DNA from: Candidatus Methylacidiphilales bacterium
GTDB taxonomy: Bacteria; Verrucomicrobiota; Verrucomicrobiia; Methylacidiphilales; JANWVL01
DNA length: 41,455 nt
Assembly (NCBI GenBank): GCA_025056655.1
Contig: JANWVL010000148.1
Span: 1 to 41,455, forward strand
Direction: 5' to 3'
Below are positions 14,701 through 41,455 of this stretch, in pieces. A program made the translations under genes and the position numbers. The notes below the pieces were generated by a model that was not told where the DNA came from, ran no database searches, and saw nothing but the letters and a program-made list of their open reading frames with translations. Every line of letters starts with the position of its first letter. The first letter of the stretch is position 1.

Positions 14701-16056
14701 TTCCGGGGCACCGCTTTCGATGAGTTTTTTCAGTCGGTTGTTTCTATTAATCACTCTTTTATAAAGAACGTTGAGGTCAGATGTTGCATAACGCCCGCCA
14801 TCCATTGTTACCATTGGGCGCAAATCCGGAGGGATCACTGGTAATACAAACAAGATCATCCATTCAGGGCGCGCATTTGACTTTCTGAATGCTTCTACTA
14901 TGCGCAATTTTCGGATGCATTCTTTTACCTTGATTTTGTTTTTACCCTGATCTATCTCTTGTCTTAGGGACTTAGCCATTTCATCGAGATTACATCTTTT
15001 CAATATTTCATATATTGCATTGGCTCCAGATCCTGCCTTGAATATGTTACTATATTTTAAACTTAATCTTTGATACATAGATTCTGTAAGTATTCTGCCG
15101 GTATAGATCTCATTAATCTCCTCGATTTCTTTATTGTAATTTTCCTCCAATTCATCGGCTTTTTTACTGAGATCTTCAAGAGATTTTCTGAGTTCTACAT
15201 TTACCTTGAGTTGCAAGTTATTGATTTCTTTCTCTATTGGAGCGATCAATTCATCTTTATCCCTCTTCATCTTCTCCTCTATATTTTTAATTATCTCATC
15301 ACACGTTGTTTTAACTTTATTTAAACATTCCCTAGTAATTTCTTGACCTCCTTCGACAATGACACTATCAAACAAGACGAGGGGAGTATTAATAGTATGG
15401 CCAATATTCTTTTCTATTTCTTGTTGTACAACTTGTGCCTGACCCATGAGGTGATTAACCTCATCTATTAATTTCTTATCATACAAAGTATTAATCTCTG
15501 ATATTTTTCTTTTCAATTCCAATATCTTATCAAAATTCCGGCTACCTTTCCCTTTATTATACCGTTTGGCCTCTTCTTTAATCTGTTCAAGTTTGAGTTT
15601 GTATTCATCGTTTAGTCTTTTAATTTCCTTTTTCCTCTGATTTTCGTCTATGTCATATATAATATAGCGTACATGATATATTATTTGCTCTATATATTTC
15701 TTTTTTATTCCCAATAATATACTGATTGGGCTGGGTGTTCTTTTGAAATACCAGGGATGAACAACTGGAGCTGCTAAGCGGATGTGGCCCATGCGCTCAC
15801 GCCGCACGCTATTATCGTTTACTTCAACACCGCATTTATCACATACAATATATTTATATTTAGGACCTTTGTACTTTCCACAACTGCATTCATAGGGCTT
15901 TACCGGCCCGAAGATGACCTCATCAAATAATCCTCCCCTTTCCGGCCGCTGGTTACGATAATTAATTGTTTCTGCGCTTGTCACTTCGCCGTGTGAAAGT
16001 GAAAGGATGCTTTCTGGGCTAGCTAAAGATATCCTTAATCCTCGTATATCTCTCAT
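11767..16056 (-). CDS. rpoC: DNA-directed RNA polymerase subunit beta'
   Basis: The 1429-residue beta' subunit. The N-terminal zinc ribbon has C57, C59, C72 and C75 (ECSCGK ... VCDKCGVEV). A long Lys/Glu-rich coiled-coil insertion follows at about 115-300. The catalytic Mg motif NADFDGDQMAVH lies at about 620, the trigger loop region (MRGLMADPSGRIIPMP ... STHGQRKGLVDTAMRTANAG) at about 885-945, and the second zinc site (DDCGTN, then CRAEHGICKKCYG) at about 965-1048. The C-terminal region is complete, and all landmarks are intact. It catalyses RNA synthesis together with beta. rpoB is normally directly upstream in bacteria; here the upstream DNA is a gene fragment and a decayed IS. The gene has its own near-leaderless promoter. 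Confidence 0.98.
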   Translation of the reverse strand: MRDIRGLRISLASPESILSLSHGEVTSAETINYRNQRPERGGLFDEVIFGPVKPYECSCGKYKGPKYKYIVCDKCGVEVNDNSVRRERMGHIRLAAPVVHPWYFKRTPSPISILLGIKKKYIEQIIYHVRYIIYDIDENQRKKEIKRLNDEYKLKLEQIKEEAKRYNKGKGSRNFDKILELKRKISEINTLYDKKLIDEVNHLMGQAQVVQQEIEKNIGHTINTPLVLFDSVIVEGGQEITRECLNKVKTTCDEIIKNIEEKMKRDKDELIAPIEKEINNLQLKVNVELRKSLEDLSKKADELEENYNKEIEEINEIYTGRILTESMYQRLSLKYSNIFKAGSGANAIYEILKRCNLDEMAKSLRQEIDQGKNKIKVKECIRKLRIVEAFRKSNARPEWMILFVLPVIPPDLRPMVTMDGGRYATSDLNVLYKRVINRNNRLKKLIESGAPEIILRNEMRMLQESVDLLIDSSTVRRSTQDIKRTPRSLSDMLRGKKGLFRKNLLGKRVDYSGRSVIVVGPNLKLNQCGLPKVMAIELFKPFVIRELIKREYAYNVKGAKRIIERGDPYIWDILEDVVKERPVLLNRAPTLHRLGIQAFDVILTEGKAIQLHPLVCQAFNADFDGDQMAVHVPLSQKAVEEARKLMMSTNNLLKPADGESIVNPTKDMVLGIYYLTFHDQKPHKGDNRAFASIDEVIAAYHLKQVDIHARIKLYTETYYDENNVRYQDNKPRKRIIETTVGRAIFNDIVPKEIQYINRTLNKSDLQVLLTEAYRIFGLEQRDRMVQFADAVKDMGFHFATKSGITFSLGDIKTPTDKEKLIFEANKKIDDLNKQYRRGLMTEEELENKTISVWSETKDEIAAAVKRSMAADDDLSMMAVSGATKGGFVPITQIAGMRGLMADPSGRIIPMPIQSNFKEGLSSIEFFISTHGQRKGLVDTAMRTANAGYLTRRLIDVVQDVYISTDDCGTNQGIYIRATDAFGQKMRDRLFGRVLASDVVHPQLGIIYPAGTLIDASKAEEIQRLNIQEVHVRSPLTCRAEHGICKKCYGMDLARGNMVAIGAAVGIIAAQSIGEPGTQLTLRTFHTGGVAMGSDITQGLTRVEEIFEARKNLKGEAIISEISGNITLKKEPNNKLYVVVESHGGSYDYPIPNGYSIKVTEGQKVTTGDLLATSGARRITTKHAGIIERVGRILRVHSQELRTATYPIPAHVRLTVQENTYVEAGDAITDGIKNPHLVLKYKGRVACQLHILSEIQKIYRIQGVNIHDKHFEVIIRKMTSKVQVVSPGDSPFLPGDYVDYFVLDEINKKLQNEGQNIAVGVPVLLGISKVALMTHSFLSAASFQHTTKMLIQSAIEGRVDFLSGLKENVIIGKMIPCGTGMRNHEIKEYEGITLHTQDMRDNQTNRLNKKQSRLNNNNDFLDEFAQGASM

Positions 16057-16094: not shown

Positions 16095-16202
16095 CTAGAG
16101 GAGAAAATCTTCCGCTATTTTTTTGAACAAATACTCCTCCAATTCATTGAAGGTATACAAAGTATTATATTGCTTCCATGCTGCTTGTAATACTGGTATC
16201 GG
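16095..16202 (-). pseudogene. C-terminal fragment of an unidentified AT-rich gene
   Basis: A 35-codon open stretch ending in TAG, just upstream of rpoC. It reads PIPVLQAAWKQYNTLY, then TFNELEEYLFKKIAEDFLL. It looks like a genuine helical C-terminus, but it is cut at its 5' side about 10 bp from the ISAs1 element. I cannot identify the gene; it does not look like the end of RpoB. It may be random coding-like sequence. Confidence 0.3.
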
Positions 16203-16210
16203 TTAGGGCC

Positions 16211-17466
16211 TCAGAGCTTACGAATCACATAAGCTGATAATCCGGCACGAGTGACGAGATACCTCCAGCTATCAAACTGCTCTTCAAACACACCAGGCCG
16301 ATCCAAGACTTTCGCCGCGACCTCAGCAAGCGCACTATCCGATGTGGCATATGGCCATCCTTATCGTCGTCGGCAGCGCTGATCGTTGACTGGGCGTCGC
16401 TGCCTTCTGGCAAGCTTGCCCTACCTTGAGTCGGCAGCTGTTTGGGCACGACCCAAGACACCCTTGACCACGACACCTTTCGGCAGGTGTTTGTGCTGTT
16501 GCCGTTTGCTAGCATTCAGCGCTGTTTCAGGGACTGGCTGGCAGCGATGCAAGCGGCTAGCGTCTGCGGCTGATCGATGAAGAGGGGCTTGCCGCCGACA
16601 GCAAGGTGCTGCGCGGCAGTCGTGAGCAGAGCACAGGCAAAGCCGCCTTGCAGAGGGTGACCGTGTATGGCCTGTATAGGCCATGTATGCCACTCAGACA
16701 AGCGTGGTGCTAGCGCAGGAAGTGGCACGCGCGGAAGCAGCCAGCAACGAGATTGCCACGTTGCCCAGCGTGCCAGCACAAGTCGAGCTGCTCGGTCACG
16801 TCGTAGTGACCGATGCGGCGCACGCCAGAAGCACAATGCCCGTGCCATCACCACGCGCGGGGGCAAATATGTGTTTGCCTTGAAGCACAATCATGCGCGG
16901 CTGTTTGAGGCACTGCAGCAAACCTAGTAGCGCGAGCAGCCGAGGGGTTTCGTCAGGTGCAGCATGAATACTCGCACACCGAAGAGCACGAGCACGGGCG
17001 TTGTGACCGACGCGAATGCTGGCTGGTTGCTGATGTGGAGTATCTGAGCTATTTCGCTCCGCAGGTGGATGCCCGGCCGAATCTTGGCGCGGTTGGTCTT
17101 GTGCGCCGCTGGCGACGGGTCGGGGAGAACGAACGTGAACGGGTGAGCTTCGACCAGTCTGAAGCAAGAGGTCAAGCGTTTTGCGCGCGCCGGAGCGCGC
17201 CTACTGGCGGATTGAGACCAGCCAGCACTGGGCGTTAGATGTGGTGTTTGGCGAAGCTCTGAGTCGGGTGCGCACTAGGCACAGCGCAGAGCACTTTGCC
17301 GCGTTTGCGACGGGTGGCATTAAACATTCTTGGCAGTGGGCAGTCTGAGGATGAGGAAGGGGGAGTCGCCATCAAAGCAAGGCGCTTGCGCGTAGCGACG
17401 ACTTCTTGCTCACGGTGCTGGCTTGCACCGCGCAGAACCTTAAAATTCTTGATGCGTAAGCCATGG
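16211..17466 (+). mobile_element. Decayed ISAs1-family insertion sequence, copy A, with 8-bp target duplication
   Basis: About 1256 bp bounded by imperfect inverted ends (TCAGAGCTTACGAATCA on the left; TGCGTAAGCCATGG on the right) that match those of the copy at 30669-31934. The flanks carry the direct repeat TTAGGGCC at 16203-16210 and 17467-17474, an 8-bp target-site duplication as I would expect for this family. GC-rich inside an AT-rich surround. Confidence 0.8.
16265..17459 (+). pseudogene. ISAs1-family transposase, many frameshifts and stops
   Basis: Pieces in all three forward frames match the ISAs1 (DDE) transposase pattern seen in copy B: a start with IQDFRRDL, a central FRDWLAAMQAA-like part, FALKHNHARLFEALQQT near 16880, CDRRECWLVADVEYL near 17010, and a C-terminal RRVALNILGSGQS piece near 17300, ending at the TAA of the right inverted end. 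No continuous frame remains, so the gene cannot make a transposase. Confidence 0.8.
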
Positions 17467-17504
17467 TTAGGGCCTTGTTACAGAATTGATAAAGGACAGT
17501 GTGC

Positions 17505-17640
17505 CTAAAGCCAAATATGTGCCTAGTCCTGCAGGTAGCTCGGATAACTCGGAGGCGCTTAGTTGAGGCGCTGCCGTCGGTTTCAGCAGCCCAACCGATC
17601 GTGGCAACGCTTCCACACCGGTGTACCGTCAAGCACTCGG
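17505..17640 (-). pseudogene. IS1-like transposase, C-terminal relic
   Basis: The minus-strand sequence aligns by eye with the 3' ends of the relics at 18655-18879 and 32830-33539: GTTATCCGAGCTACCTGCAG, then ACTAGGCACATATTTGG and a TAG. These correspond to the usual GY.SYPRDYASIWF end of this transposase group. An internal stop and frame changes are present. The ISAs1 copy A inserted about 30 bp beyond this end. Confidence 0.55.
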
Positions 17641-17676
17641 GAAGAGCAAGGGCTGGATTCGCTAGCGCTACATTCT

Positions 17677-18203
17677 TTAATCGCCTAGCAACTGCCTAAG
17701 CAGCCTGCCTTGCTCTGCAAGGAGCGCCTGCTGTTCTTGAATGAGTACCTGCTGCAGTCTGGCGAGCCGGTCATAGCTCTGCAAGATTAGCTGGTATTTC
17801 CTCTGCAGCGCTTCAGCCGCCTGTTGTTGCTGCTGCTGCAGACGCCGCAGCACCAACGCAGGACGAATGAGTTGTAGACGGCTGATGGTGAACGATCCGG
17901 TTAGGGTCAGCGGATACAGCAGACCGTCTTCTCCTTCGAAGAAGTGATGCCCGGCGAGCTCGGCGCGTGGGTTCCATAGATGGGGGTCATTAGGGCTGAT
18001 AGGAGCATAGTCGCCATTGTAACGATTGGGACATGAGCAGGAGTAGACCAAGTTTTCTGGATCGTCTGTCCAGCCTGGCTTTGCAGAACGAAGGGGTCAA
18101 TTGTGAGGTTTCCACATGCTTCCAGTTCGCTGACACCACAATACTCATACCGAAAGGCGGCGCGACGACGAACAAACTCTCGCTGCGATGCTGTCAACGC
18201 CAT
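17677..18203 (-). pseudogene. HNH endonuclease family gene, frameshifted and active-site deficient
   Basis: Two minus-strand frames together spell an HNH protein of a type common in Chloroflexota and cyanobacteria. The first frame (from 18203) has FVRRRAAFRYEYCGVSE then LTIDPFVLQSQAG. After a frameshift near 18070 it continues DDPENLVYSCSCPNRYNGD, then LWNPRAELAGHHFF and a Gln-rich helical tail. The family's TIDHxxP motif reads TIDPFV here, so the catalytic His is missing. With the frameshift this makes it a pseudogene. It follows the intact coiled-coil gene at 18243-18584 by 39 bp. Confidence 0.7.
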
Positions 18204-18242
18204 GCACGTTCAGAGGCCAGATAGGCCCAGCCATGGTGAACT

Positions 18243-18584
18243 TCATGCAGTTTGCTGCTGAGCAATGCGTTTGGCGAGTTGCGCACGCAAGTGCGCGTTC
18301 TCTTGCCGCAGCGCTGCGTTCTCTGCCTCTAGCCGATCAATCGTTGTCAGCAGCTCCGCCAGCTGCTTCAAAGTCCGGCGCACTTGGTCCTGCAACGCGA
18401 CGATATCGGGCTGAGGGCTCAGATTCAGCGCATGGAGCTCATCCTGTTGCTCCTGCACATACCATGCTTGTAGGGCTGCTTGCTCTTCTGGTGTCAGACT
18501 CTCGCCGCGCGTAAAACGGTCGTGAAGTTCTAATCCGATCTGCGTCACTTCACCCGAACGCATTCTCAATCTTAATACTACCAT
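18243..18584 (-). CDS. Small coiled-coil protein upstream of the HNH relic
   Basis: A 113-residue protein starting MVVLRLRMRSGE. The N-terminal half contains LTPEEQAALQAWYVQEQ. The C-terminal half is a heptad-rich coiled coil (LLTTIDRLEAENAALRQEN). GGAG lies just before the ATG at 18584, inside a small hairpin. The frame is intact despite decay on both sides. Function is unknown; its place before an HNH gene suggests the two once formed a unit. GC-rich like the surrounding mobile DNA, so probably imported. Confidence 0.6.
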   Translation of the reverse strand: MVVLRLRMRSGEVTQIGLELHDRFTRGESLTPEEQAALQAWYVQEQQDELHALNLSPQPDIVALQDQVRRTLKQLAELLTTIDRLEAENAALRQENAHLRAQLAKRIAQQQTA

Positions 18585-18654
18585 GCTTTCACTCCGCAAG
18601 GAGTTAAAAAATCCAACATGAGCGAGCTTTCGACGCGGCGGGCAACATCGAGTT

Positions 18655-18879
18655 GTGTCTGGCAAGTCGCAGCCCTGTTCGGTTGAGGCAGATCTCGCCG
18701 AGTTGCTGCACGATCTACCACGCTTAGCCCGACGAACGCGGTGCCTTTCACGGTGTGTGGAAGAGTTGCGGCGGTCGGTTGCGTCCTTTGTTCCATGCTG
18801 GAATCAGCAGCAGCTGTTAAAGCGTGCACATCTGGGTTATGCGAGCTATCCGCGGGACTACGCAGGTACTTGGTTCTAG
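18655..18879 (+). pseudogene. IS1-like transposase, C-terminal fragment
   Basis: One open frame gives the C-terminus of an IS1-type transposase: SVEADLAELLHDLPRLARR, TRCLSRCVEELRRSVASF, then CWNQQQLLKRAHLGYASYP and RDYAGTWF. The N-terminal two thirds, including the zinc-finger start and the first catalytic residues, are absent, so this is a relic. The same ending occurs at 17505-17640 (reversed), 33315-33539 and 36447-36545. Confidence 0.7.
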
Positions 18880-19283
18880 GCATTCCTGTAAAGGAGGCAC
18901 GCAGATTTGACACTATCATCGCACTCACCAGAGATGTTAACTTCTAGAAGTAAGGTGTGTTTCTCCAATAGAGTGTGGGATAACTGCGTAACCTGCCTAG
19001 TGATAGAGAAGTATGGGAGTATGTCGTGATGATACTGCTATGCCGAGATAAGTTGTCTGTTATTTATTTCATGATGAAAAATCATCAGCACATACTGTAA
19101 ATTTTCCAGACTGGCCATATTTCTAGGCAGCTTCATTGGCTGCAAAAACATCATTCAGTAGGATCTGCGCCTAATTACGTGGTGCATAATATAGAAAATT
19201 CGGGTTAGAGACAGGGTGGATCTAATCTCAAATACTTTTTGGATCGTTTTACTTCTATATTGCTATTTTGATTTATGGGGTAG
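18880..19283. other. Intergenic region without a supported gene
   Basis: About 400 bp between the IS1-like relic and the SH3b gene. Composition shifts from GC-rich to AT-rich across it. Both strands carry short frames with stops and no convincing start, repeat or RNA gene. Only the promoter at its right end can be supported. Confidence 0.6.
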
Positions 19284-25805: not shown

Positions 25806-26832
25806 CTAGGCATGGCGCATCAGCGTAAGGCACATCAACACCTTCAGAACCACTATCTGCTTGGCTTCACCAGTGAAATCCTGCTTATCGCGAAAAGCGT
25901 TCAGCTCCTGCTGCAGGATGACGATGCGCTTCCCGTAGCCCTGCGTAAAGTATTCCGACAGGTTGGAGTTGTAAACGGTTGTGGCGATGTCGTGCGGGCC
26001 GGTGAAGGTCGCCGAGAAATTGAACAGGAAGCCATTGCGAGAGAGCATGGAATAGATGTGCTGCCGTTTCGACTCAGCTCGGTCTCCTCGGTGCGCTTCG
26101 TCCAGCAACACATACCACTGCCCATCGTTCTCATATGTGCGAAAGTCAATTATCTTCTCCTTCTGCTCGTCGCTGAGGTTGTCTACGCGATAGTAGAACA
26201 CTGTCACCTCGACCTGTGTAAACAGTGATGGGTACATCCGTTTAGCAAGGTCGTATTCGCTCAGGTTGTACAGACTGATGCGAAAGTTAGTTTGCGCCGC
26301 GTTGAACTCGTCGATATGGCGGTGAAGCTGCTCAATTAAGTCGTCGCGGTGCGTCAGGAACAAAATATCGTGGGGGGGTATCTCGCCGTGCTGGATGATC
26401 GTCCAGAGCATGTCGATAAGCTTCACAATCACCAGCGTTTTGCCGCTGCCTGTCGCCATCCAGATATTCATGCGGTTGATGAACGGTTCGTAGGAGTCAC
26501 CTTTGAGGTCATAGCGTTCGCGGAGTAGCTGCAGGAAGCGTGGGTTCAGTTTGCTCGCTTCGAGGCGCATTGTGTGTTCGTCGACGCCGTTGTCTCTGTA
26601 CCACTGCCAGAGAAGCGCTTTGCGCCATTCGTTGGTTGTAAGCAGCTAGTCGCGCTGATTGTCGCGCTGATAGACGACGAAGTCTTCTTAGTACTTCCAC
26701 AAGATGTTGCGTGCATTGCGCAGGGCGGCTTGCTGATACTTGCGCATCGCTTTGGTGTGTGAGAAGGTCTCCACGTCCAGATTTGTCCATGTTTCGGGCA
26801 AGCTCGACGAGTGTATAGCTTCCGCCATCAGC
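25806..26832 (-). pseudogene. Type III-like restriction subunit (DEAD/DEAH helicase), truncated with stops
   Basis: The longest open piece (254 codons from 26570) carries Walker A ATGSGKT, a DEAH box (VLLDEAHRGDRAESK) and motif III SAT (NFSATFTGPHD). This is the first RecA domain of a restriction helicase. It then stops at 25806, so the second helicase domain and the nuclease domain are missing. Upstream, the same frame continues through two stops (near 26695 and 26650: NILWKY stop EDFVVYQRDNQRD stop LLTTNEW), so the N-terminus is broken too. It lies after the methyltransferase remnant in the order expected for a mod-res pair. Non-functional as a restriction enzyme. Confidence 0.85.
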
Positions 26833-26992
26833 TGCAGCAGAATCGATACAACGGCAAATCAGCTCCGTTTGTGTCGTCGTCGCGGCATTAGGGGCGACAT
26901 TCGGACGCCTGCAGTTTTATGACCCCTTTCTTCCCCTATCTCTGCCTTAGTAAGTGTAAATGGCAGCGCAGCTCCTTATCGCACCAATGAGC

Positions 26993-29363
26993 TCACCACC
27001 AAATAAGCGGTTTAATAAGACGCCAATCTGGATTTTGTAAATCCACTTCGCTGCCGTCTGTAAAGACCACCTTTCCATGACGAGTTGGGTCAGTGAGGTC
27101 AGGAACGATCCGCTGGATCGGCTTGCCTTGCAGGTTGGAGAGGGTCTCAGCAAGGTCGATATTTGGGTATAACCGATCCAGATATATCTGCACGGCGTTG
27201 TCCTTTATTTGAAGCACATTCGTTTGCTTGGTATCGCGCAGGAACAGGTAGCACAGTGGTTCGTTGGGCGTGACCGGGTCATAGTCTGCATAGTGCGTGC
27301 GCCGCAGCGTGTCTTCAAACTGTTCGAGTTCGTAGTATTTGAAGAAACCTCCGCCCTTCCAACCTGGTTCCGCAGATACACCTGATTGTTCTTTGTACAC
27401 AACAGACTTCATGCGCCTTAACAGCACAGTCTCGGAATGATTTCCAAACTCAATCGCTATATACCGACGCATCATTTTGTGGGCGACTGCTGCGGTTGTT
27501 CCAGAGCCAGCGAAGAAATCAAGGCAAACATCTCTCTGCGAGGCAATGCCGACCACGCGATACAGGAGATGTTCGGAGTTCTCTGTCTTAAATCTCCACT
27601 TGTTCGAGTAACCCTTTATGTCTAACCAGTTGTTGTCCACAACCACTGTTTCACGAGGCGGTATCCAGTACTTGACAGCTCCAATCCCCCAATCCTCTTT
27701 CTTTATGAACTCTAAACGCTTACCCGTACGCTCCCAGTAGTTCTCTAAGCTCTACCCCGTTGCCTGCGCCATTTTTAAGTACTCTTGGTAGTTTTCTACC
27801 GCGCGCAGTGCACGGTGCTTTTCCCACATCCATTGCCCTTTTTGTGGTAGCTCTCCAAGCAACTGATATCGCAATGTCGGACGATCCTCTGCTTTCCAGA
27901 AGGAGTGCCACTGAGCTTTAGCATGCTTACTACTCGCAGGTTTGACAATGTGAGGGAACCTTGTCTCCGCGTTCTTGGAGTACCAATACAAGTTGTCGTA
28001 GTTAACAGTGAGTCCTTTGATACTATCAAATTGCTTAGTAAACTCTCCTTTCGATTCTTCTGCACGACGAACTATTATTTCGTTTCTGTAGTTTTCGCGC
28101 CCAAAGACCAAGTCCATTAACAATCGTACAAGCATGTTTCCGTCATGACCAACCCTAAAGAATATCGAGCGTGAGACTGACATCATTTCGCCAGCGATCA
28201 TCAGCCTGTTTTCAAGCATGGTTAGCCAAGTGGAATCCTTGTAATTCACTTCGTAGTCATACTCAGCTTTCTTGCCCAGATTGAATGGCGGATCGATGTA
28301 AATACATTGCACCTTTTCCCTCCATTTCGGCAAAATCGTGTTCAACGCCTGATAGTTCTCACTTTTGATGAGCCAGCCGTCCAGCGCATCATCAAGATTG
28401 TCAAACAGCCCCCGAATCCACAGCTCCAAATCTTTGAAGTAGCGCGTGTCAACTGGCAAATACTGATAGCGCGGGTTGAGCCAACGCCCACACATCAGGT
28501 CTTGCTCAACAAGCTGCACAAGCGTAAAGGTGTCATCCACCATGCCCAGCTCGCGCCACTCCTGCACCTGCCGATCAATATTCTGGTGCTTTAAAAGCTT
28601 ATCCAGCACTTTCCAACCCCCTTCACGCGCCACAATCCTGTCCAGCGTAATCACATAGTGGCTGTTCAGCACAAACTTGGGCTTTTCCCAGATTTTGACC
28701 AGGTCATCCTCAAACGCAGCAATGTAGACGATCACGCGATACGCAACGCGCTTGAGCGCTTGCAGTTGCTTGAGACGCGCTTCTGTCCATTCTGTGTTCG
28801 GCTCCTCGCCTGGCTTGCCCAGCAGGTACTGCCACAGCCACAGGTCAAACTGCTCGCGCAGGAAGCCTTTCGCGTCCTTGCAGAGGAAGTAGTCCACTTC
28901 ACTTTGCCGCTCGAACACGCGGAATGCCCGCTCCAGCGTTGCCTCGGAAGGCACAGCGTCGGTGTAGCGCGTGAGTCCAAGTGCGTTGCGGATTTGGCGG
29001 CGGATTTCAACTAGGTCAGTTTGCCTACCGCGTTCCGAGTAAGTCATTGTGAAAACCAGCGCGCCATCGCTCTGGCGTATCTCCTTGAACTCAAATACTA
29101 GCTCGCGTTTCTCGTTCGCCTTCTTATGCTCCAACGCAGAGGCATCAAAGTAGAACTTGAAGCCGTCAACTTGGGCTTCCATACTGCGGAACAGGCGATC
29201 GGTCTTCGCGTAGTAGAGGCGTTGCGTCTTCCAGAAATGGCAACTTGACTAACGCCACGTCTAGCTGCCTCGCCATGCCGCCTGTGTTTGTCAGCGGCAG
29301 AGGGTGATAGGGCATCATCTCCCATGCGGGGAGGCTGTCCCTCAACCCGAATTGTTGAGACAT
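26993..29363 (-). pseudogene. Type III-like (beta-class) adenine DNA methyltransferase, one frameshift and one amber stop
   Basis: From the ATG at 29363 (MSQQFGLRDSLPAW) the frame shifts once in an A/T triplet near 29236. It then runs as a 476-codon piece to a TAG at 27752-27754 and continues in the same frame to 26993. The catalytic motif DPPF (CIYIDPPFNLG, about 28280) and the AdoMet-binding motif DFFAGSGTT (about 27515) are intact but separated by the TAG. The domain order DPPF then FxGxG is that of beta-class methyltransferases such as Mod of type III systems. The partner helicase follows. Whether any readthrough makes active enzyme cannot be told from sequence. Confidence 0.85.
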
Positions 29364-30668: not shown

Positions 30669-31934
30669 CCAGGGCTTACGCACCACATAAGGTGATCATA
30701 AGGTCTAAGCGACGAGACCCCTTTGGCTATCGAGCTGCTCGCGGAGCACGCTAAGCAAATCCAGGACTTCCGCCGCGACCTCGGCAAGCGCTACCCGTTG
30801 TGGTATGTGGTCGTCCTCGCCGCCATGGCCGTTGTCGGTGGCGCTGACAGTTGGCTGGACATTGCTGCCTTCGGGCAAGCCCGCCCTGCCCTGCGTCGGC
30901 AGCTGTTCGAGCATGAATACGGCACGAACAGCCCACGACACCTTTCGACGCGTCTTTGTCTTCTTGCCGTTTGCCAGCATCCAGCGCTGTTTCAGGGACT
31001 GGCTGGCGGCGATGCAAGCGGCTAGTGTCTGCAGCTGAGCGAAGAAGAGGTGCTTGCCGCTGACGGCAAGGTGCTGCGCGGTAGCGCTGAGCGGCGCACA
31101 GGCCAAGCCACCCTACAGATGGTGACCCTGTATGGCCTGTACAGGCCATGTACGCCACCCAGACGGGCGTCGTGCTAGCACAGGACGTGGTGCGCGCGGA
31201 AGCAGCCGGCAATGAGATTGCGGCATTGCCCAACATGTTGGCGCAGGTTGAGCTGCGCGGTCACGTCATGGTGACCGATGCGGGACACGCGCAAAAGCCC
31301 AACGCCCGTGCCATTACTGAGCGCGGGGCGAGTATGTATTTGCCTTGAAGCGCAATCATGCGCGGCTGTTTGAGACGCTGCAGCAGACTTGGCAGCGTGA
31401 GCAGCCTGAGGGGATTCGTCAGGCGCAGCATGAATACTTGCACACCGAAGAGCGCGGGCACGGGCGTTGCGACCGACGCGAATGCTGGCTGGTTGCTGAT
31501 GCGGAGTATCTGAGCTATTTCGCTCAACAGGTGGATGCATGGCCGAAACTAGGCGCGGTTAGTTTTGTGCGTCGCTGGCGACGCTCTTGGGGAGAGCGAG
31601 CGTGAACAGGTGAGCTTCGATTAGCCTGAAGCAGGGGGTCAGCCCCTTTGCGCGCGCGGTGCGTGCCTACTGGCGGATTGAGAACAGCCAGCACTGTGCC
31701 TTGGATGTGGTGTTTGGCGAAGACCTCAGTCGGGTGCGTAAGTGGTACAGCGCAGAGGACTTTGCTGCGTTGCGACGGGTGGCGTTGAGTATTCTGGGGA
31801 GTGGGCAGTCTGGTGAGGAGGATGAATGCGCATCAAAGCGAGGCGCTTGCGCGCGGCGCGCAGCGACGACTTCTTGCTCACGGTGCTGGCTTGCACCGCA
31901 CAGAACCTTAAAATTCCTGATGCGTAAGTCCTGG
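30669..31934 (+). mobile_element. Decayed ISAs1-family insertion sequence, copy B
   Basis: About 1266 bp with inverted ends CCAGGGCTTACGCA and TGCGTAAGTCCTGG (one mismatch). No target duplication is evident (TAATCAGG on the left, TAAATAAA on the right). The left end is preceded by a short tandem repeat of its own tip (AGGCCAGGGCTTAATC). Less decayed than copy A. Confidence 0.85.
30723..31927 (+). pseudogene. ISAs1-family transposase, frameshifted
   Basis: It opens with AKQIQDFRRDLGKRYPLWYV and GGADSWLDIAAFGQARPAL, as in ISAs1 transposases, and shifts frame near 30920 (then TFRRVFVFLPFASIQRCF, DWLAAMQAA). Later pieces include VMVTDAGHAQKPNARAITER (catalytic Asp region), FALKRNHARLFETLQQTW, CDRRECWLVADAEYLSYF and a C-terminal ENSQHCALDVVFGEDLSRVR ... 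RRVALSILGSGQS. It ends at TAA 31925-31927 inside the right inverted end. Several frameshifts and stops make it inactive. Confidence 0.85.
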
Positions 31935-32526
31935 TAAATAAACTACAAAAATGAAATTACTGGCGACATCCATTAAACGATAATCACCAAAATTAACTAG
32001 ACGATGTCTACCGTCATTATTTAATTTCTTATATATATAATTATCTGTAAGCTAGAATTACGATAAAATAGTGAACACAGAGCATTTCACGTCGGTATTC
32101 TGCACACAATATAAATATATCATTGCGTCTAGCAAATGCTATTGTCTTTTAACTTAATTAAATAACCAATCCATTCACTGATCAAACGATAGTACAGATA
32201 TTAGTGATGGAGGAGATATAGATATTTTATGGTAGCGCTAGTTTTAATGGATATGCTGCTTGCAACAATCTTTAGCATGAGCCAAAAAGCAAGCTTGATC
32301 TTGAAGAGGGACTTCAACGGAAGAAATGAAGTTAACTGAATAGATTAATTTATATTACGATGAAATATAAGATATAAAAATACTTTTTTACGCCCACATC
32401 TAATAGGAGAATTATTTATTTGTTAAGCATGGCAAGCTGTTTAAAGTAAATTGATTTAATAGACAACTATCGAGAAACCATTCACTACTCGATGTACCAT
32501 AAGATACACAAAGATATCTCCTCTAT
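31935..32526. other. AT-rich intergenic region
   Basis: About 590 bp between ISAs1 copy B and tRNA-Asn. I find only short frames; the best is 36 codons from about 32230 (MVALVLMDMLLATIFSMSQK...), with no support beyond an ATG. No repeat, RNA gene or hairpin was found. Confidence 0.55.
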
Positions 32527-32829: not shown

Positions 32830-33539
32830 TGAAGCAAGAATCACAGCAACAGCCAGCGCTACCTGTGCAAGGTCTGTAATCGTCATTTCACCCCTCAGCC
32901 CAACCCAATCGGCTACTCGCTTAGAATCCTGGCCAAGCCGTCGAGATGTATCTAGATGGCCACCGCTTCCGACGCATCGGGCGCCATCGGCGTGTCAAGT
33001 GCGTAATCGGTAGCCACCTAGGTCAAGTGCGCCGGTGAACGTGCCTTGGCTGCCCTCATCCCACAGCCCCCAACCGACGACTAACCCATCGTCGAGCTTG
33101 AGAGCAGTTCACATTCGTCGGGAGTAAAAAACGCGCCGATCTCATCACGCAGGTCGATCGCCGGCGCGCACTGCGTGATGAGCTGGTAGATGCTCTATCC
33201 CGCGATGAAGGGGTGTTGCAAGCAGTGGTGGATCAAGCACCATGCGCATGTCAGTATTGCACTGACGGCTTCAGTGGGTATGCCGCTTTGAACTACCGTG
33301 GCGGTAGTCTCTAGTTGCGCCGGGCAAGTCGCAGACCTATTCAGTTGAAGCAAGTCTTGCCGAATTGCGGGGGCTCTCGCTCACTTAGGCCGACGGACGC
33401 GGTGATTTTCGCGGTGTGTGGAAGCGCTGTTGCAATTGGTTGTGCCCTTGTGCAATGTTGGAATCGGCGGCATCCCTTCAAGCAAGCGCATCTGGGTTAT
33501 CAGAGCTATTCGCGGGACTACGCAAGTATTTGGATTTAG
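32830..33539 (+). pseudogene. IS1-like transposase, nearly full-length but decayed
   Basis: It starts within the zinc-finger region (SQRYLCKVCNRHFTPQPNP), continues VEMYLDGHRFRRIGRHRRVK in another frame, then a weak FTFVGSKKRADL piece near 33110 and CQYCTDGFSGYAALNY near 33270. It ends with the C-terminal CWNRRHPFKQAHLGYQSY and RDYASIWI. This is the order of IS1-type transposases. Frameshifts and stops separate the pieces. GC-rich within AT-rich DNA. It is the most complete of four related relics in the window. Confidence 0.75.
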
Positions 33540-33676
33540 AAACTCCCTAATTTTTCATAAGCGCAAAATAATCGACATAATTTTATATTTACCCATAGAT
33601 ATTGAATTATGCAATAATACAAGGTATTATTCGCGTGATATCTGTTACATATCACTACAAACATTTAAAGGACAGG

Positions 33677-33695
33677 TATATCTTCTTAAGATATA
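33677..33695 (+). promoter_or_regulatory. 8-bp inverted repeat overlapping the DUF1874 promoter
   Basis: TATATCTT-CTT-AAGATATA is a perfect 8-bp inverted repeat ending 3 nt before the ATG at 33699. The right arm contains TAAGAT (33687-33692), which is exactly 6 nt before the ATG and could be the -10 box. A protein bound here would block transcription, so this is a candidate operator. Confidence 0.4.
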
Positions 33696-33698
33696 AGC

Positions 33699-34082
33699 AT
33701 GGTGATACTAATGAATTCTTCTATGATGCCTGAGCCTGATTTAGCGTACTATCCCGCAAGAATATCGCGAGATAAATTTGTGGAATTAGTACGTCAAGCT
33801 CATGAGATGGGTTTGTTAGAATCTTATATCGGTTATGAAGCGACGTGTAAGCACATTGAGGATATTAGCCAAATTAAAGTCGCACTTAATCGTGAACCGG
33901 TCTCGCTGAAACATGGAGATATGATTTTAGTGTGTAAGCTAAAGTATAGGCTTGCAAACGCCGATATGAAGAATGATAAATCTTTTCAGGACACGATAAA
34001 TGCAGATGATTTTGAGTACTGGCAAATTGATGTTCGCGATTATGATTATTCAAACTATTCTTCTTCTTCAGCTATTCCGTAG
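33699..34082 (+). CDS. DUF1874 (AcrIII-1/Crn2 ring-nuclease family) protein lacking the catalytic His
   Basis: A 127-residue protein matching the family in order: N-terminal strand MVILMNSSMMP, then PARISRDKFVELVRQAHEMG, the signature SYIGYEATCKHIED, then NREPVSLKHGDMILVCKLKY and RLANA. The family includes viral AcrIII-1 and cellular Crn2 enzymes, which cut cyclic tetra-adenylate made by type III CRISPR. In the family signature GHxxT the His is catalytic; here it is Tyr (GYEAT). The Glu of the later R-L-x-E-G motif is also missing (RLANA), while the Arg is kept. It may bind a ligand without cutting it. The last 40 residues are acidic and Tyr/Ser-rich. Its end overlaps the opposite TadG-like gene by 28 bp. 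No CRISPR genes are in the window. Confidence 0.7.
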   Translation: MVILMNSSMMPEPDLAYYPARISRDKFVELVRQAHEMGLLESYIGYEATCKHIEDISQIKVALNREPVSLKHGDMILVCKLKYRLANADMKNDKSFQDTINADDFEYWQIDVRDYDYSNYSSSSAIP

Positions 34083-34857: not shown

Positions 34858-34886
34858 TTGACATAGGTATATTTCTGTATTATCAT
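34858..34886 (+). promoter_or_regulatory. Promoter TTGACA-17-TATCAT
   Basis: A consensus -35 TTGACA (34858-34863), a 17-bp spacer and TATCAT (34881-34886). Start of transcription should fall at 34891-34894, on the ATGATG pair, so the first ATG at 34885 is probably not used. Confidence 0.65.
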
Positions 34887-34890
34887 GAGT

Positions 34891-35469
34891 ATGATGGAAG
34901 ATAAAATGAAGACTAACAAATACGCATCCCAGCGTGCATTCGCCATGTTAGTTCATGCAATGAGAGAGCATGGTGAAATAAATGATACGATCGAAAGCAT
35001 CAAGAATGAAGCTCGTGAAAATGGCGTCTCAGAAAAAGAACTCAACACCATTATCACACGGGCCAAGGCTTACGTGCGAAGATGTCCAACAAAGACTCGA
35101 GTTTCATCGCTTGATCGCGAACGGATCTTAAACGAAATAATTGCAGAAATGGAGCGTGGCCATGATCGCGTTGATCGTGGAGTAACATGGGTGATGAAAA
35201 CTTACGGTTTGAAGCCCCCCACTGCTTATCGCTACCTGCGACTAGCAAACATGATAGCGAAAAAAGAAGTTGAGCTAGATGAGATCGTCTGGGGGGGAGT
35301 GTCCAGGCGGGGTCGTCCTAGGAAAAACAAAGTTATCCAAGCCAGTGAATCTGATGAGATCTCTACCTCGGACGATACTCCTATCAGTGAACCCGACGAG
35401 ATCTCTACCTCGGACGATACTCCTATCAGTGAACCCGACGATACTCCTAGCAAACTAGAGCATGCGTGA
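34891..35469 (+). CDS. HTH-like cytosolic protein with acidic repeat tail
   Basis: 192 residues from the ATG at 34891 (34885 and 34894 are alternatives). The N-terminal 60 residues are helical. The middle part is basic (RAKAYVRRCPTKTRVSSLDR) and is followed by VTWVMKTYGLKPPTAYRYLR, which resembles a helix-turn-helix, then RRGRPRKNK, an AT-hook-like GRPRK motif. The last 45 residues are acidic with two copies of DEISTSDDTPISEP. This suggests a DNA-binding protein, possibly a regulator, but no family is recognised. Confidence 0.65.
   Translation: MMEDKMKTNKYASQRAFAMLVHAMREHGEINDTIESIKNEARENGVSEKELNTIITRAKAYVRRCPTKTRVSSLDRERILNEIIAEMERGHDRVDRGVTWVMKTYGLKPPTAYRYLRLANMIAKKEVELDEIVWGGVSRRGRPRKNKVIQASESDEISTSDDTPISEPDEISTSDDTPISEPDDTPSKLEHA
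35356..35439. repeat. Perfect 42-bp tandem duplication in the acidic tail
   Basis: Units 35356-35397 and 35398-35439 are identical, followed by a partial third copy (GATACTCCT). The length is a multiple of three, so copy number can change without breaking the frame. Confidence 0.9.
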
Positions 35470-37882: not shown

Positions 37883-38063
37883 CATATAAGTAAAGCATTG
37901 CAGCTATCTAGAATGACTTTGTATAAATTTAAACGCAATCTTTAAATTCAGCATGATTTATACAATCTAATCAATATAATGTTAGAGAAGTCATCTTCTG
38001 CTTTATATTAAAATTAAATTTATAATATTACAAATAAATTGTACTGATAAATTATGTTGTTGA

Positions 38064-38069
38064 TATAAT
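38064..38069 (+). promoter_or_regulatory. -10 box (TATAAT) before a small reading frame
   Basis: Perfect TATAAT, 8 nt before the ATG at 38078, with the same spacing as the other genes of the window. Confidence 0.4.
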
Positions 38070-38077
38070 GATAACGA

Positions 38078-38257
38078 ATGGGTGAACTAATAAGTATGCC
38101 TAAAGATATAGATTGCTCTAGCCAATTCTTCCGCCTGTTTCTAGTGTGTGCATATTTCCAATTGTTACATGTTGACGATGCTTCATGTTTTATATGTGTT
38201 TATAAGATATACTCCTCACGAACTGTTATGTATATAATACCATCGGTAAATAATTAG
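38078..38257 (+). CDS. Possible 59-residue protein
   Basis: Open frame MGELISMPKDIDCSSQFFRL, FLVCAYFQLLHVDDASCFIC and so on, ending in TAG. It has a hydrophobic middle and four Cys residues. The only support is the well-placed TATAAT box, so it may be a small gene or chance. It is the last AT-rich feature before the GC-rich segment. Confidence 0.35.
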   Translation: MGELISMPKDIDCSSQFFRLFLVCAYFQLLHVDDASCFICVYKIYSSRTVMYIIPSVNN

Positions 38258-38273
38258 TATTGTCACGTAAATC

Positions 38274-38322
38274 CCAGCTAAAGTGCGCTCGCTGCCCTGC
38301 TCGGCAGCGAGCGCAAAGCTGG
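38274..38322. terminator. Large hairpin at the AT-rich/GC-rich boundary
   Basis: A perfect 13-bp stem (TGCGCTCGCTGCC / GGCAGCGAGCGCA) with a 6-nt loop, extended by an outer CCAGCT/AGCTGG stem. It lies just where composition changes from AT-rich to strongly GC-rich. Probable terminator, no U-tract. Confidence 0.6.
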
Positions 38323-38357
38323 AAGGATTTGGGGCGATAAGGAGAGAGGTGAGGGAA

Positions 38358-38952
38358 ATGAACCCAAACCCTGGACTCATTATACCTATCTACACCATCC
38401 CATCAAACGGCCTCGTAGAGAACGGCGCTGAGGTCGCGCCGTTCGCCCTGGCAACTCCGGCGTCACCATCGCCGCCAGCTTGATCGGCTAGGACGGGCGC
38501 GGGCGTGAGCTCGGTGTCTTGCCCGTCGAGGGCATTGACCCGACACCGATCAAGGACGACAGCCCATGGAGCTATCCACGCCCGCCGCGCGTGTACCGTG
38601 CGCGGATCGGCACGACCCGCTCGGGTCGCCCCAAGCTGATCGCCGCCGACGGCGAGCCAACGCAGGACGAGGCGATCGTCGTCCTGCGGACGGGGATCGG
38701 CTTCCGCAGCGGAAAAGCTCACACCGACGAGAGCGGCGGCGCGTGCTCGTGCGCGGCGTGATCGCGCAGGGTCACGCCGGGCGCATAGGCAGCGGCGGAC
38801 CGCTCGTCGCCGTCATTCCCCGCGGCGTCGTCTTCCGCATTGCCTACAGCGGGCGGATGTATGGTCGCCCACGCGAGTACTTCTGCCTCTACGACGGCTC
38901 GCGCGTCATCACGGCGACTCGCGACCAGCGCGAGTTGGGCGACTTGTTCTGA
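38358..38952 (+). pseudogene. GC-rich gene of unknown function, two frameshifts and a stop
   Basis: From the ATG at 38358 (after GAGGTGAGGG) it reads MNPNPGLIIPIYTIPSNGLV and ENGAEVAPFAL. It shifts by one base near 38450 (then GNSGVTIAASLIG, a TAG, DGRGRELGVLPVEG), and shifts again near 38720 (VLVRGVIAQGHAG ... YFCLYDGSRVITATRDQREL). It ends TGA at 38952, two bases before the recombinase ATG. The reconstructed protein of about 197 residues is mostly beta-type; family unknown. It probably shared an operon with the recombinase. Confidence 0.6.
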
Positions 38953-38953
38953 A

Positions 38954-39794
38954 ATGAAAATGACCGACGCCAGCGCGCCGCACACCCGCCGCGCCTACGC
39001 CAGCGCCGTGCGCGCCTGCCTGCGCTGGCTGCGTGAGCGCCTCGGCGAAGAGATCGCGCCCGAGGCGCTCACCCCGACCGACCTGCGCGCGTACGTCGAG
39101 CACCTCACGCGCAGCAGCAAAGCGCCGCGCACGATCAACGTGCACATCGCGGCGCTCAAGGCGCTCGGGCGTCAGCTCGTCGCCCAGGGTAAGCCCGACC
39201 CCGCCGCGACCTGCGCCTGATCCGCGTGGATCAGCCCATAGCCCCGCGCGCGCTTGACGAGCGCGCAGCGCTGACACGCCAGCATCCCGAACGCAACCCC
39301 GCTTGGCCGATCCGCGACCGCAGCTTCGTGCTGATGCTGCTGCACACGGGGCTGCGGCTCGGCGAGGCGCTGGCGCTGGACGTGGGCGACGTTGTCCTCG
39401 GCGAGCGCAGCGGCAGCGTGCGCGTGCGAGCGGGCAAGGGCAACCGCGCGCGCGCAGTGCCGCTCAACCGCACCGCCCGCGCCGCCCTGCGCGAGTGGCT
39501 GGACGCGCGCGCGGCGCTGCAACCAAACACCAACGCGCTGTGGCTCTCGCAGCAGCGCCGACGATGGAGCGCCAACGGAGTCGAACACCTGTTCCGCGAG
39601 CTGTCCGAGCGGGCAGGGCAGCGCATCACCCCCCCCACATCCTGCGGCATACCTTCGCCACGCGCCTAATCGCCTCAGGCATCGGCATCGAGCGCGTGGC
39701 AACGCTGCTCGGGCACGCGCGGCTGGACGCCACGCGCATCTACACCGCGCCGACGTGGGATGACCTCGCCGGAGCAGTGGAGCACCTCGGCTAG
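38954..39794 (+). pseudogene. XerC/D-like tyrosine recombinase, two frameshifts
   Basis: The core-binding domain (HTRRAYASAVRACLRWLRER ... LTRSSKAPRTINVHI) is in one frame. It shifts near 39210 to DLRLIRVDQPIAPRALDERA and the catalytic domain: Arg I in HTGLRLGEALALD, Lys in VRAGKGNRARAVPL. It shifts again in a run of eight C (39629-39636) to HILRHTFATRL (HxxR), LLGHARLDATRIY (His and the nucleophile Tyr) and the stop at 39794. All catalytic residues survive; only the frame is broken, about 280 residues in all. The homopolymer site could be a sequencing error. Confidence 0.85.
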
Positions 39795-39818
39795 AGCCAC
39801 TCAGCCGACATTTCACTA

Positions 39819-40574
39819 CTACCCCAAAAAGCGGACCACGAGGCCGAGGCCAGGGGAAAAGGCAAAGCTAACCGCAAACACGACGACAGCTTGACCCAGG
39901 GAGAGTAGCACCTGCTCGGCGACGGTCAGCGGTCTGCTGACCATTGTGCCTTGAAAATCCTGGGTATGCACGAACGCCCCCAACACCATTGAGAACGTCA
40001 GCGCCATTATGTAATCATACTGCGATATCCCGCTGCGAAAACCGTTCAACGCCACGTCGAGAGCAACGACCGCGGCGCTCCAAGCCAAGACGATCGAGGA
40101 GGGGATAGACGATTTGACAAGCCTGCCCTGCTCGTGGTCGGCGCGCACAAACGCCGACGACAGCACAGCACGTACAGCGCCAGAAGGCACAACAAAGAGC
40201 GCCAGAGGCTCGACGGATAGATAGTCCACCAGCGCCAGCCCCATGCCCACCGCGCCGATCACGGAGGATGCGGCGACAAGCACAACGCTTGCCCAGGCGA
40301 TCCAGTCGCGCGGCTCGCCACCCCCACTTTGGATCAGCCGAAAGGTAAGGCCAGTCGGAATCAGCGCGGCGAATATCAGAGCGACCGAAGTGATAGCCGG
40401 AAAGAAGGCAGATAGCCATGTCCGATTAGGAGGAGGAAATAGCGCCCCGTATGCGCCGACGACGCCTAGCGTAACTACATACATCGCGGCGATGATCAAG
40501 CCAGACCTGCGAATCCCCTGCACGTCCTCGCGAAGCTTCTGATCGTATAGGGTAGAGCTTTCAAATCTGTTCAT
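39819..40574 (-). CDS. Multi-pass membrane protein, unknown function
   Basis: 251 residues from the ATG at 40574 (MNRFESSTLYDQKLREDVQG), which overlaps the TGA of the prepilin peptidase gene; a longer frame to 40655 would run inside that gene and is rejected. Six or seven hydrophobic helices with few polar loops (e.g. SGLIIAAMYVVTLGVVGAYG, WIAWASVVLVAASSVIGAVG). Codon use is GC-rich. Coupled to the prepilin peptidase, so it may belong to the same pilus pathway. Confidence 0.75.
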   Translation of the reverse strand: MNRFESSTLYDQKLREDVQGIRRSGLIIAAMYVVTLGVVGAYGALFPPPNRTWLSAFFPAITSVALIFAALIPTGLTFRLIQSGGGEPRDWIAWASVVLVAASSVIGAVGMGLALVDYLSVEPLALFVVPSGAVRAVLSSAFVRADHEQGRLVKSSIPSSIVLAWSAAVVALDVALNGFRSGISQYDYIMALTFSMVLGAFVHTQDFQGTMVSRPLTVAEQVLLSLGQAVVVFAVSFAFSPGLGLVVRFLG

Positions 40575-41131
40575 CACATCAACACCCCCAACGCCACCGC
40601 AACGCCCAACGGCGCGAGCAGCGGCGCGCTGCGCTCGCGATCCGCGCGCGCCCACACCTCAGCAACCAGCAATGCAGCGATCAAGACCGGCACGCGCTGC
40701 ATATCGCCCAACGACAGCACAGCTATAGGCAGCGCGATCACATCGCCCAACCCGACCCCGCCGCGCGACCAGCGCAGCACCAGCGCCGACGCCAAAGCCA
40801 CCATCACGCCCAGGGCGAGCACCATGCCATCGCCGCCCCGCAGCGGGAGCGACAAGGCGGCAAACGCGCCGAGCGGCAGGATCGCCCAATCGTGCACGGT
40901 TCGGCGGGCGTAATCCACCCAGCCCAGCGCCAGCCAAGCGCAGGCAAGCCCGACGCGCCACGCCGCACCCCAACCCAAGCCGTGCATGCTCAGAGCGACG
41001 AAGGCGTAGCCGACCATCGCGCCAGCGAGGACGTGCAGCGGCAACCGCGACACGCCCGCGCCCCTAGCATGCGCCCAATACACGCCGCCCACGCCAACGG
41101 CCAACGCAGGCATGATCAGCTCTCCGATCAT
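40574..41131 (-). CDS. A24-type prepilin peptidase (CpaA/TadV-like)
   Basis: A 185-residue membrane protein with both aspartate motifs of the A24 family: VDYARRTVHDW (matching D...R.VPN, about 70-82) and GGVGLGDV (GxGD, about 127-134), separated by helices. It lacks the N-terminal methylase domain of PilD, like CpaA/TadV. It cleaves the leader of type IV-type prepilins at the inner face of the membrane. Start ATGA-coupled to the upstream gene; stop overlaps the next. Confidence 0.8.
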   Translation of the reverse strand: MIGELIMPALAVGVGGVYWAHARGAGVSRLPLHVLAGAMVGYAFVALSMHGLGWGAAWRVGLACAWLALGWVDYARRTVHDWAILPLGAFAALSLPLRGGDGMVLALGVMVALASALVLRWSRGGVGLGDVIALPIAVLSLGDMQRVPVLIAALLVAEVWARADRERSAPLLAPLGVAVALGVLM

Positions 41132-41455
41132 GACTGCCCTCCTGATGACTGCCCTCCTGATGACGATTGCGCCACGTCAGGCGTCTGCTCCGTCGGCTTG
41201 CGCTTCAGCAGCACTTTGCGCCGCTGCCCAGCAGCGCCGTTGTCGTTAGTAGCAGTAAGCCGCTCATCGCCATCGCGTTCCTCACCGTGGTGGACGGCGA
41301 AGCTCAAGGCAACAACCTCGGTGACGACCTGCTTGACCATCGTCCCGCCGATGCTGCCGAGCGCCTTGCGCGCTGCAGCATCCTCGATCAACGAGGCGAG
41401 CGAGACCTGGATATCCCGGCTGGCGATCAGCCCAACCAGCTCCAGCGTCCGCCCG
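41128..41455 (-). CDS. C-terminal part of an unknown protein (runs off right edge)
   Basis: The frame is open from the window edge to the TGA at 41128, about 108 residues. It starts GRTLELVGLIASRDIQVSLA and continues with an Ala/Gly/Val-rich helical part, a charged segment (HHGEERDGDERLTATNDNG) and a Ser/Gly/Gln tail with a small repeat (SSGGQ twice). Function is unknown. First visible gene of the GC-rich operon with the prepilin peptidase. Confidence 0.6.
   Translation of the reverse strand, partial: GRTLELVGLIASRDIQVSLASLIEDAAARKALGSIGGTMVKQVVTEVVALSFAVHHGEERDGDERLTATNDNGAAGQRRKVLLKRKPTEQTPDVAQSSSGGQSSGGQS
41132..41161. repeat. Two tandem 15-bp units
   Basis: GACTGCCCTCCTGAT occurs twice in a row, coding for the SSGGQ repeats at the end of the right-edge gene, directly before the prepilin peptidase start. 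Confidence 0.85.

What the first reader, a model, noticed from the sequence alone, without database searches (positions are those of the whole stretch)
33699..34082. DUF1874/ring-nuclease family protein with Tyr in place of the catalytic His
The protein follows the DUF1874 layout closely, but GHxxT is GYEAT and the later Glu is lost (RLANA), while the Arg is kept. From family knowledge, the His drives cleavage of cyclic tetra-adenylate in AcrIII-1/Crn2. This variant may bind a cyclic nucleotide without cutting it: a sensor, a sponge, or a repurposed protein. An inverted repeat sits on its promoter and no CRISPR locus is nearby.
Basis: partly seen in the sequence, partly recalled or inferred. 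Interest (0 to 1): 0.75.

Follow-up and report, generated by a model that had tools for sequence, protein, structure and literature searches.

The report
Ring-nuclease relatives lacking the catalytic histidine
This small protein belongs to the family of viral enzymes that destroy a CRISPR alarm molecule, but it is one of a well-separated group, otherwise found on phage contigs, in which the cutting histidine is always a tyrosine, so it most likely binds such an alarm molecule without (or hardly) cutting it.

Summary
Window 33699-34082 (+) encodes a 127-aa protein over the Pfam cut-off for DUF1874 (PF08960). Its AlphaFold model (pLDDT 91) matches AcrIII-1 and Crn2 at Z 15-16. The catalytic His (SIRV1 gp29 His47) is Tyr46, and Glu88 is Asn87. 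The two core Args are kept.

It is not a one-off. IMG/VR phage contigs encode seven distinct relatives (30-43% identical), and all have Tyr there. The 63 other DUF1874 rows compared all have His. The Tyr proteins form one branch (100/100; 99 without the motif columns). They share further pocket changes: Gln81 to Lys/Arg, position 84 to Tyr/Phe, and loss of Glu88.

Published His-to-Ala mutants of AcrIII-1 (H47A) and Crn2 (H495A) are inactive, but H47A still binds cA4 (KD about 25 nM). Best reading: a messenger-binding, non-cleaving or very slow subfamily carried by mobile elements, probably anti-defence. The ligand is unknown and nothing was assayed.

The MAG has no detectable Cas10 or SMODS gene, only type I-C and II remnants. 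The gene lies on a low-GC, T4SS-bearing set of contigs (about 320 kb) with its own RNA polymerase and replication genes.

Novelty: new variant of a known kind.

The parts
33699..34082 (+). DUF1874 (PF08960) protein of the Tyr clade, 127 aa
33714..33731 (+). codons for NSSMMP (residues 6-11) of the clade signature LMNS[AS]MMP; Asn6 = SIRV1 gp29 Asn8
   Evidence: alignment; N, S, M, M, P each 8/8 in the clade
33834..33836 (+). codon of Tyr46, at the place of the catalytic His47 of AcrIII-1
33891..33893 (+). codon of Arg65 (= Arg66 of SIRV1 gp29), invariant in both groups
33936..33959 (+). codons 80-87, KLKYRLAN: Lys80 (Gln81 of gp29), Tyr83 (84), Arg84 (85, kept), Asn87 (Glu88, lost)
33677..33695 (.). 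8-nt perfect inverted repeat just before the start codon; function unknown
   Evidence: searches give weak or no support
33576..33631 (.). two further AT-rich inverted repeats upstream of the gene

Best explanation
It is a member of a distinct subfamily of DUF1874, encoded by mobile elements, that keeps the dimeric cyclic-nucleotide-binding fold and the core arginines but has a Tyr in place of the general-acid His. Most likely it binds a cyclic oligonucleotide defence signal in the DUF1874 pocket and holds it (a sponge), or releases it only by very slow cleavage through the substrate's own 2'-OH. It would thereby protect the element that carries it. Shown here: family, fold, fixed Tyr and co-changes, mobile-element setting of the relatives. 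Inferred: dimer, ligand binding, lack of fast cleavage, anti-defence role. The ligand may be cA4 or another cyclic nucleotide.
For: Fold and family; the top structural match is the H495A mutant of Crn2 holding cA4 (8y7g). All 8 members of the clade have Tyr; 63/63 others have His. The Tyr group is one branch, 100/100, and 99 with the motif columns removed. Seven distinct copies on IMG/VR viral contigs. Published: AcrIII-1 H47A is inactive but binds cA4 at about 25 nM (PMC7213978); Crn2 H495A does not degrade cA4 (PMC7293037); His acts as the general acid (PMC7371418). A ring-nuclease family with sponge members exists: Csx15 (PMC13148439). The window's contig belongs to a T4SS-bearing low-GC set.
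Against: No binding or cleavage was measured. Tyr can serve as a general acid in some nucleases, and the in-line attack could proceed slowly without His. Pocket changes (Gln81 to Lys/Arg, new Tyr at 84) may have removed cA4 affinity. The MAG has no detectable Cas10 or SMODS cyclase, so no target signal is visible in this host. Type III systems make so much messenger that sponging may be futile (argument in PMC13148439).
Confidence: 0.5

Rival explanations
1. An active phosphodiesterase with a rebuilt active site: Tyr46, with Lys80 and Tyr83, replaces His as acid, perhaps on a messenger other than cA4.
For: Tyr is strictly conserved with Lys/Arg81, Tyr/Phe84 and Arg66, as expected of a working site rather than mere loss; position 88 is often Asp/Asn.
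Against: The position is His in 63/63 other members; His-to-Ala abolishes activity in two members (PMC7293037; PMC7213978).
Confidence: 0.22
2. A repurposed protein: the fold now acts in regulation or binds nucleic acid or a non-immune ligand of the element.
For: The host lacks detectable Cas10 and SMODS; the clade members sit among phage genes of unknown function without CRISPR genes; some DUF1874 records are annotated as DNA-binding.
Against: The residues aligned with the known pocket are the conserved ones in the clade (Asn6, Ser7, Tyr46, Arg65, Lys80, Tyr83, Arg84).
Confidence: 0.22
3. A decayed ring nuclease on its way to loss.
For: His and Glu are both gone; single copy, no other in 388 genomes of the phylum by PF08960.
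Against: Intact ORF, high-confidence fold, and the same Tyr and signature in seven other distinct proteins.
Confidence: 0.04

Closest known systems
AcrIII-1 (SIRV1 gp29, PDB 6scf/2x4i; THSA-485A and other phage homologues)
   Same: Fold (Z 14.8, 105 residues), PF08960, GxxxT loop, Asn8, Arg66, Arg85, carried by mobile elements
   Different: His47 is Tyr, Glu88 is Asn, Gln81 is Lys, Gln84 is Tyr; 17-19% identical; no activity tested
Crn2 domain of Marinitoga Csx1-Crn2 (PDB 8y7f/8y7g)
   Same: Best fold match (Z 16.0), same pocket arginines; its H495A mutant binds but does not cut, the state proposed here
   Different: Stand-alone protein, no CARF-HEPN part, no type III locus in the genome, natural Tyr
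AFV3-109 and STIV B116 (PDB 2j6b, 2j85)
   Same: Fold and family
   Different: Both carry the His
Tyr-clade proteins on IMG/VR contigs (L191, L193-L198)
   Same: Same signature LMNSAMMP...GY...K/R-L-x-Y/F-R, 30-43% identical
   Different: On phage contigs; not described as a group in the papers found
Sponges Acb2, Tad1, Tad2, Acb4, and Csx15
   Same: Proposed way of working: hold the messenger
   Different: Different folds; Acb4 is dsRBD-like (PMC11722364)

Membership tests
DUF1874 / PF08960 (STIV_B116-like) | Profile score above the curated cut-off | tested here: met
   39.2 bits against 26
DUF1874 / PF08960 (STIV_B116-like) | Fold of solved members | tested here: met
   Model pLDDT 91; Z 13-16 to six solved members
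DUF1874 / PF08960 (STIV_B116-like) | Invariant Gly46, Arg66, Arg85 (gp29 numbers) | tested here: met
   Gly45, Arg65, Arg84
AcrIII-1 / Crn2 ring nuclease | Catalytic His in GHxxT | tested here: not met
   Tyr46; His in 63/63 other members compared
AcrIII-1 / Crn2 ring nuclease | Glu88 near the active site | tested here: not met
   Asn87; but a few His members also lack Glu
AcrIII-1 / Crn2 ring nuclease | Cleaves cA4 | not testable with these tools
   Needs an HPLC or radiolabel assay
Crn2 (cellular) | Next to a type III CRISPR locus | tested here: not met
   No Cas10 over the cut-off in the MAG; none in the window
AcrIII-1 (viral/mobile) | Encoded by a virus or mobile element | tested here: inconclusive
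   Clade relatives are on IMG/VR contigs; the window contig shares IS-like repeats with T4SS-bearing low-GC contigs, but the replicon is not closed
Cyclic-nucleotide sponge (functional class) | Tight binding without turnover | not testable with these tools
   Inferred from published His mutants only

The most novel reading that the evidence does not exclude
The Tyr clade is a separate functional class built on the AcrIII-1 fold: phage and giant-element proteins whose remade pocket (Tyr46, Lys/Arg80, Tyr/Phe83, Arg65, Arg84) sequesters or cuts a defence messenger other than cA4, perhaps from a signalling system not yet described.
Probability: 0.3. Interest if true: 0.8.

Novelty: new variant of a known kind. 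Interest (0 to 1): 0.52.

Why it matters
Only enzymes are described for the DUF1874 fold in the papers found. A natural, conserved clade without the catalytic His would mean that the most widespread type III anti-CRISPR fold also gives rise to non-enzymatic (or differently specific) messenger binders, as in the Csx15 family. It also warns that annotating every PF08960 hit as a ring nuclease is unsafe.

Tried and rejected
Only genome contigs relative (L002): a radical-SAM protein matched through VRQAHEMG, false. Single-copy oddity or pseudogene: rejected after seven Tyr relatives appeared. PADLOC 'Csx16' hit: the model fires on every DUF1874 protein tried, SIRV1 gp29 included, so it says nothing special. 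Glu88 loss as proof of inactivity: rejected, a few His members lack it too. Search for the Tyr clade in plasmids and isolated phages: none by tblastn (searches give only distant His members or nothing). Phylum search with a clade member: only the own genome clearly; two weak hits at E 0.005-0.007, one with stops, not followed. NCBIfam: nothing. RNA structure of the leader: no signal. A weak Cas10 hit on C58 (E 0.6) lies in low-complexity sequence.

Full report
Observation. The ORF at 33699-34082 (+) encodes 127 aa and is a real member of DUF1874: PF08960 E 7.9e-10, above the curated cut-off, and PHROG 5063. A profile of 25 relatives finds the solved members 2j6b, 8y7f, 2x4i, 2j85 and 6scf. An AlphaFold2 model (pLDDT 91, pTM 0.82) matches only this fold: Z 16.0 to the H495A Crn2 mutant with cA4 (8y7g), 14.8 to AcrIII-1 (6scf), 14.7 to AFV3-109; the next unrelated chain has Z 2.5 (Foldseek one search agrees).

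Active site. In SIRV1 gp29 numbering, Asn8, Gly46, Arg66 and Arg85 are kept. His47 is Tyr46, Gln81 is Lys80, Gln84 is Tyr83, Glu88 is Asn87. Members were drawn from phage and plasmid records and IMG/VR. In a first set of 67 distinct stretches, 64 had His, 2 had Tyr and 1 had a gap there.

A Tyr clade. Those two Tyr proteins (near-copies, L185/L186) share ESYIGYE and KLKYR with the window protein and are 40% identical to it over the alignment. A scan with this trio found six further distinct proteins, all with Tyr. A second scan using only the pattern LMNS[AS]MM, which does not involve the Tyr, returned the same set, and a third added none. In the final comparison of 71 rows, 8 of 8 clade members have Tyr and 63 of 63 others have His. 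The clade also shares Lys/Arg at 81 (8/8), Tyr/Phe at 84 as aligned (8/8), no Glu at 88 (8/8; Asp, Asn, Lys or Thr) and Met-Met-Pro at residues 9-11 of the window protein, with Arg66 8/8 and Arg85 7/8. The tree puts the Tyr rows on one side of one branch, 100/100, stem length 1.58, and 99 when the motif columns are left out. Columns are few (91-109), so the place of the clade within the family is uncertain.

Mechanism. Established by others: AcrIII-1 uses the His as general acid (PMC7371418); H47A is inactive but binds cA4 at about 25 nM (PMC7213978); Crn2 H495A does not degrade cA4 (PMC7293037). By inference, natural loss of this His should leave a binder with little or no cleavage. Against simple cA4 sponging of type III signals stands the argument that these systems make too much messenger (PMC13148439). 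The rebuilt pocket may therefore serve another, scarcer messenger, or another chemistry. These cannot be separated here.

Setting. The MAG (2.4 Mb, 178 contigs) has one DUF1874 gene, no Cas10 or SMODS gene over cut-off, a type II locus on C42 and a type I-C fragment on C149, the subtypes read from the neighbouring ORFs. No other genome among 388 of the phylum has a PF08960 hit. The window is the whole contig C148. It is low in GC, with high-GC repeats shared with some 20 other low-GC contigs, together about 320 kb. These carry T4SS parts (PrgI on the window, a TrwB/VirD4-type ATPase on C16), RNA polymerase and replication genes. The class Ia aminoacyl-tRNA synthetases found form what looks like one set, and none lies on the low-GC contigs. 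The likeliest reading is a large mobile element, which suits an anti-defence gene; a partial contaminant is not excluded.

Neighbours. Clade genes on IMG/VR contigs lie among small genes of unknown function and replication genes, with no CRISPR genes recognised nearby (read by eye from the ORFs). The inverted repeats before the window gene are slightly more than chance but give no stable RNA.

Verdict. Observation confirmed and widened from one protein to a clade; interpretation plausible but untested; new variant of a known kind.

Noticed in passing
window 11767-16056 (-); G000 C87, C16, C144, C146, C52, C83, C108: The low-GC contigs encode a second RNA polymerase: full-length RpoC (window; 45-51% identical to all class members alike) and RpoB (C87), not linked to each other, plus shortened RpoB-like (823 aa) and RpoC-like (954 aa) paralogues and two sigma factors. 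They also carry DnaE, DnaN, DnaG, UvrD, RadA-like and DnaJ. No class Ia aminoacyl-tRNA synthetase lies there. Possibly a giant conjugative element of at least 320 kb with its own transcription and replication machinery, or a partial contaminant.
   Followed up: partly
window 16100-19100, 30670-31935, 33310-33539: Degenerate IS-like high-GC repeats, about 45 matches in the MAG, on low-GC contigs wherever the contig was read.
   Followed up: partly
window 38001-41455: Abrupt rise to 56-70% GC with an integrase and a prepilin-peptidase-like ORF: an inserted element or a misjoined contig end.
   Followed up: no
window 25806-29182 (-): Methyltransferase and helicase fragments in several ORFs, like a broken type III restriction-modification system.
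   Followed up: no
L104:2974-3513, L105, L101: DUF1874 proteins with His but no Glu88 and an R-x-[ND]-V-A motif; L104/L105 add a helical ferritin-like tail (weak Pfam hits).
   Followed up: no
L107 (Vibrio aerogenes plasmid pLMG19650): A YddF/DUF1874 gene with His beside cas1 and a RAMP gene on a plasmid: a Crn2-like setting, also without Glu88.
   Followed up: no
PADLOC model PDLC01147 'Csx16': The model matches every DUF1874 protein tried, including SIRV1 gp29, so the name may mislead.
   Followed up: partly
window 34885-35469 (+): Putative HTH/partition-like protein with a duplicated acidic Ser/Thr tail (ISTSDDTPISEPDE).
   Followed up: no
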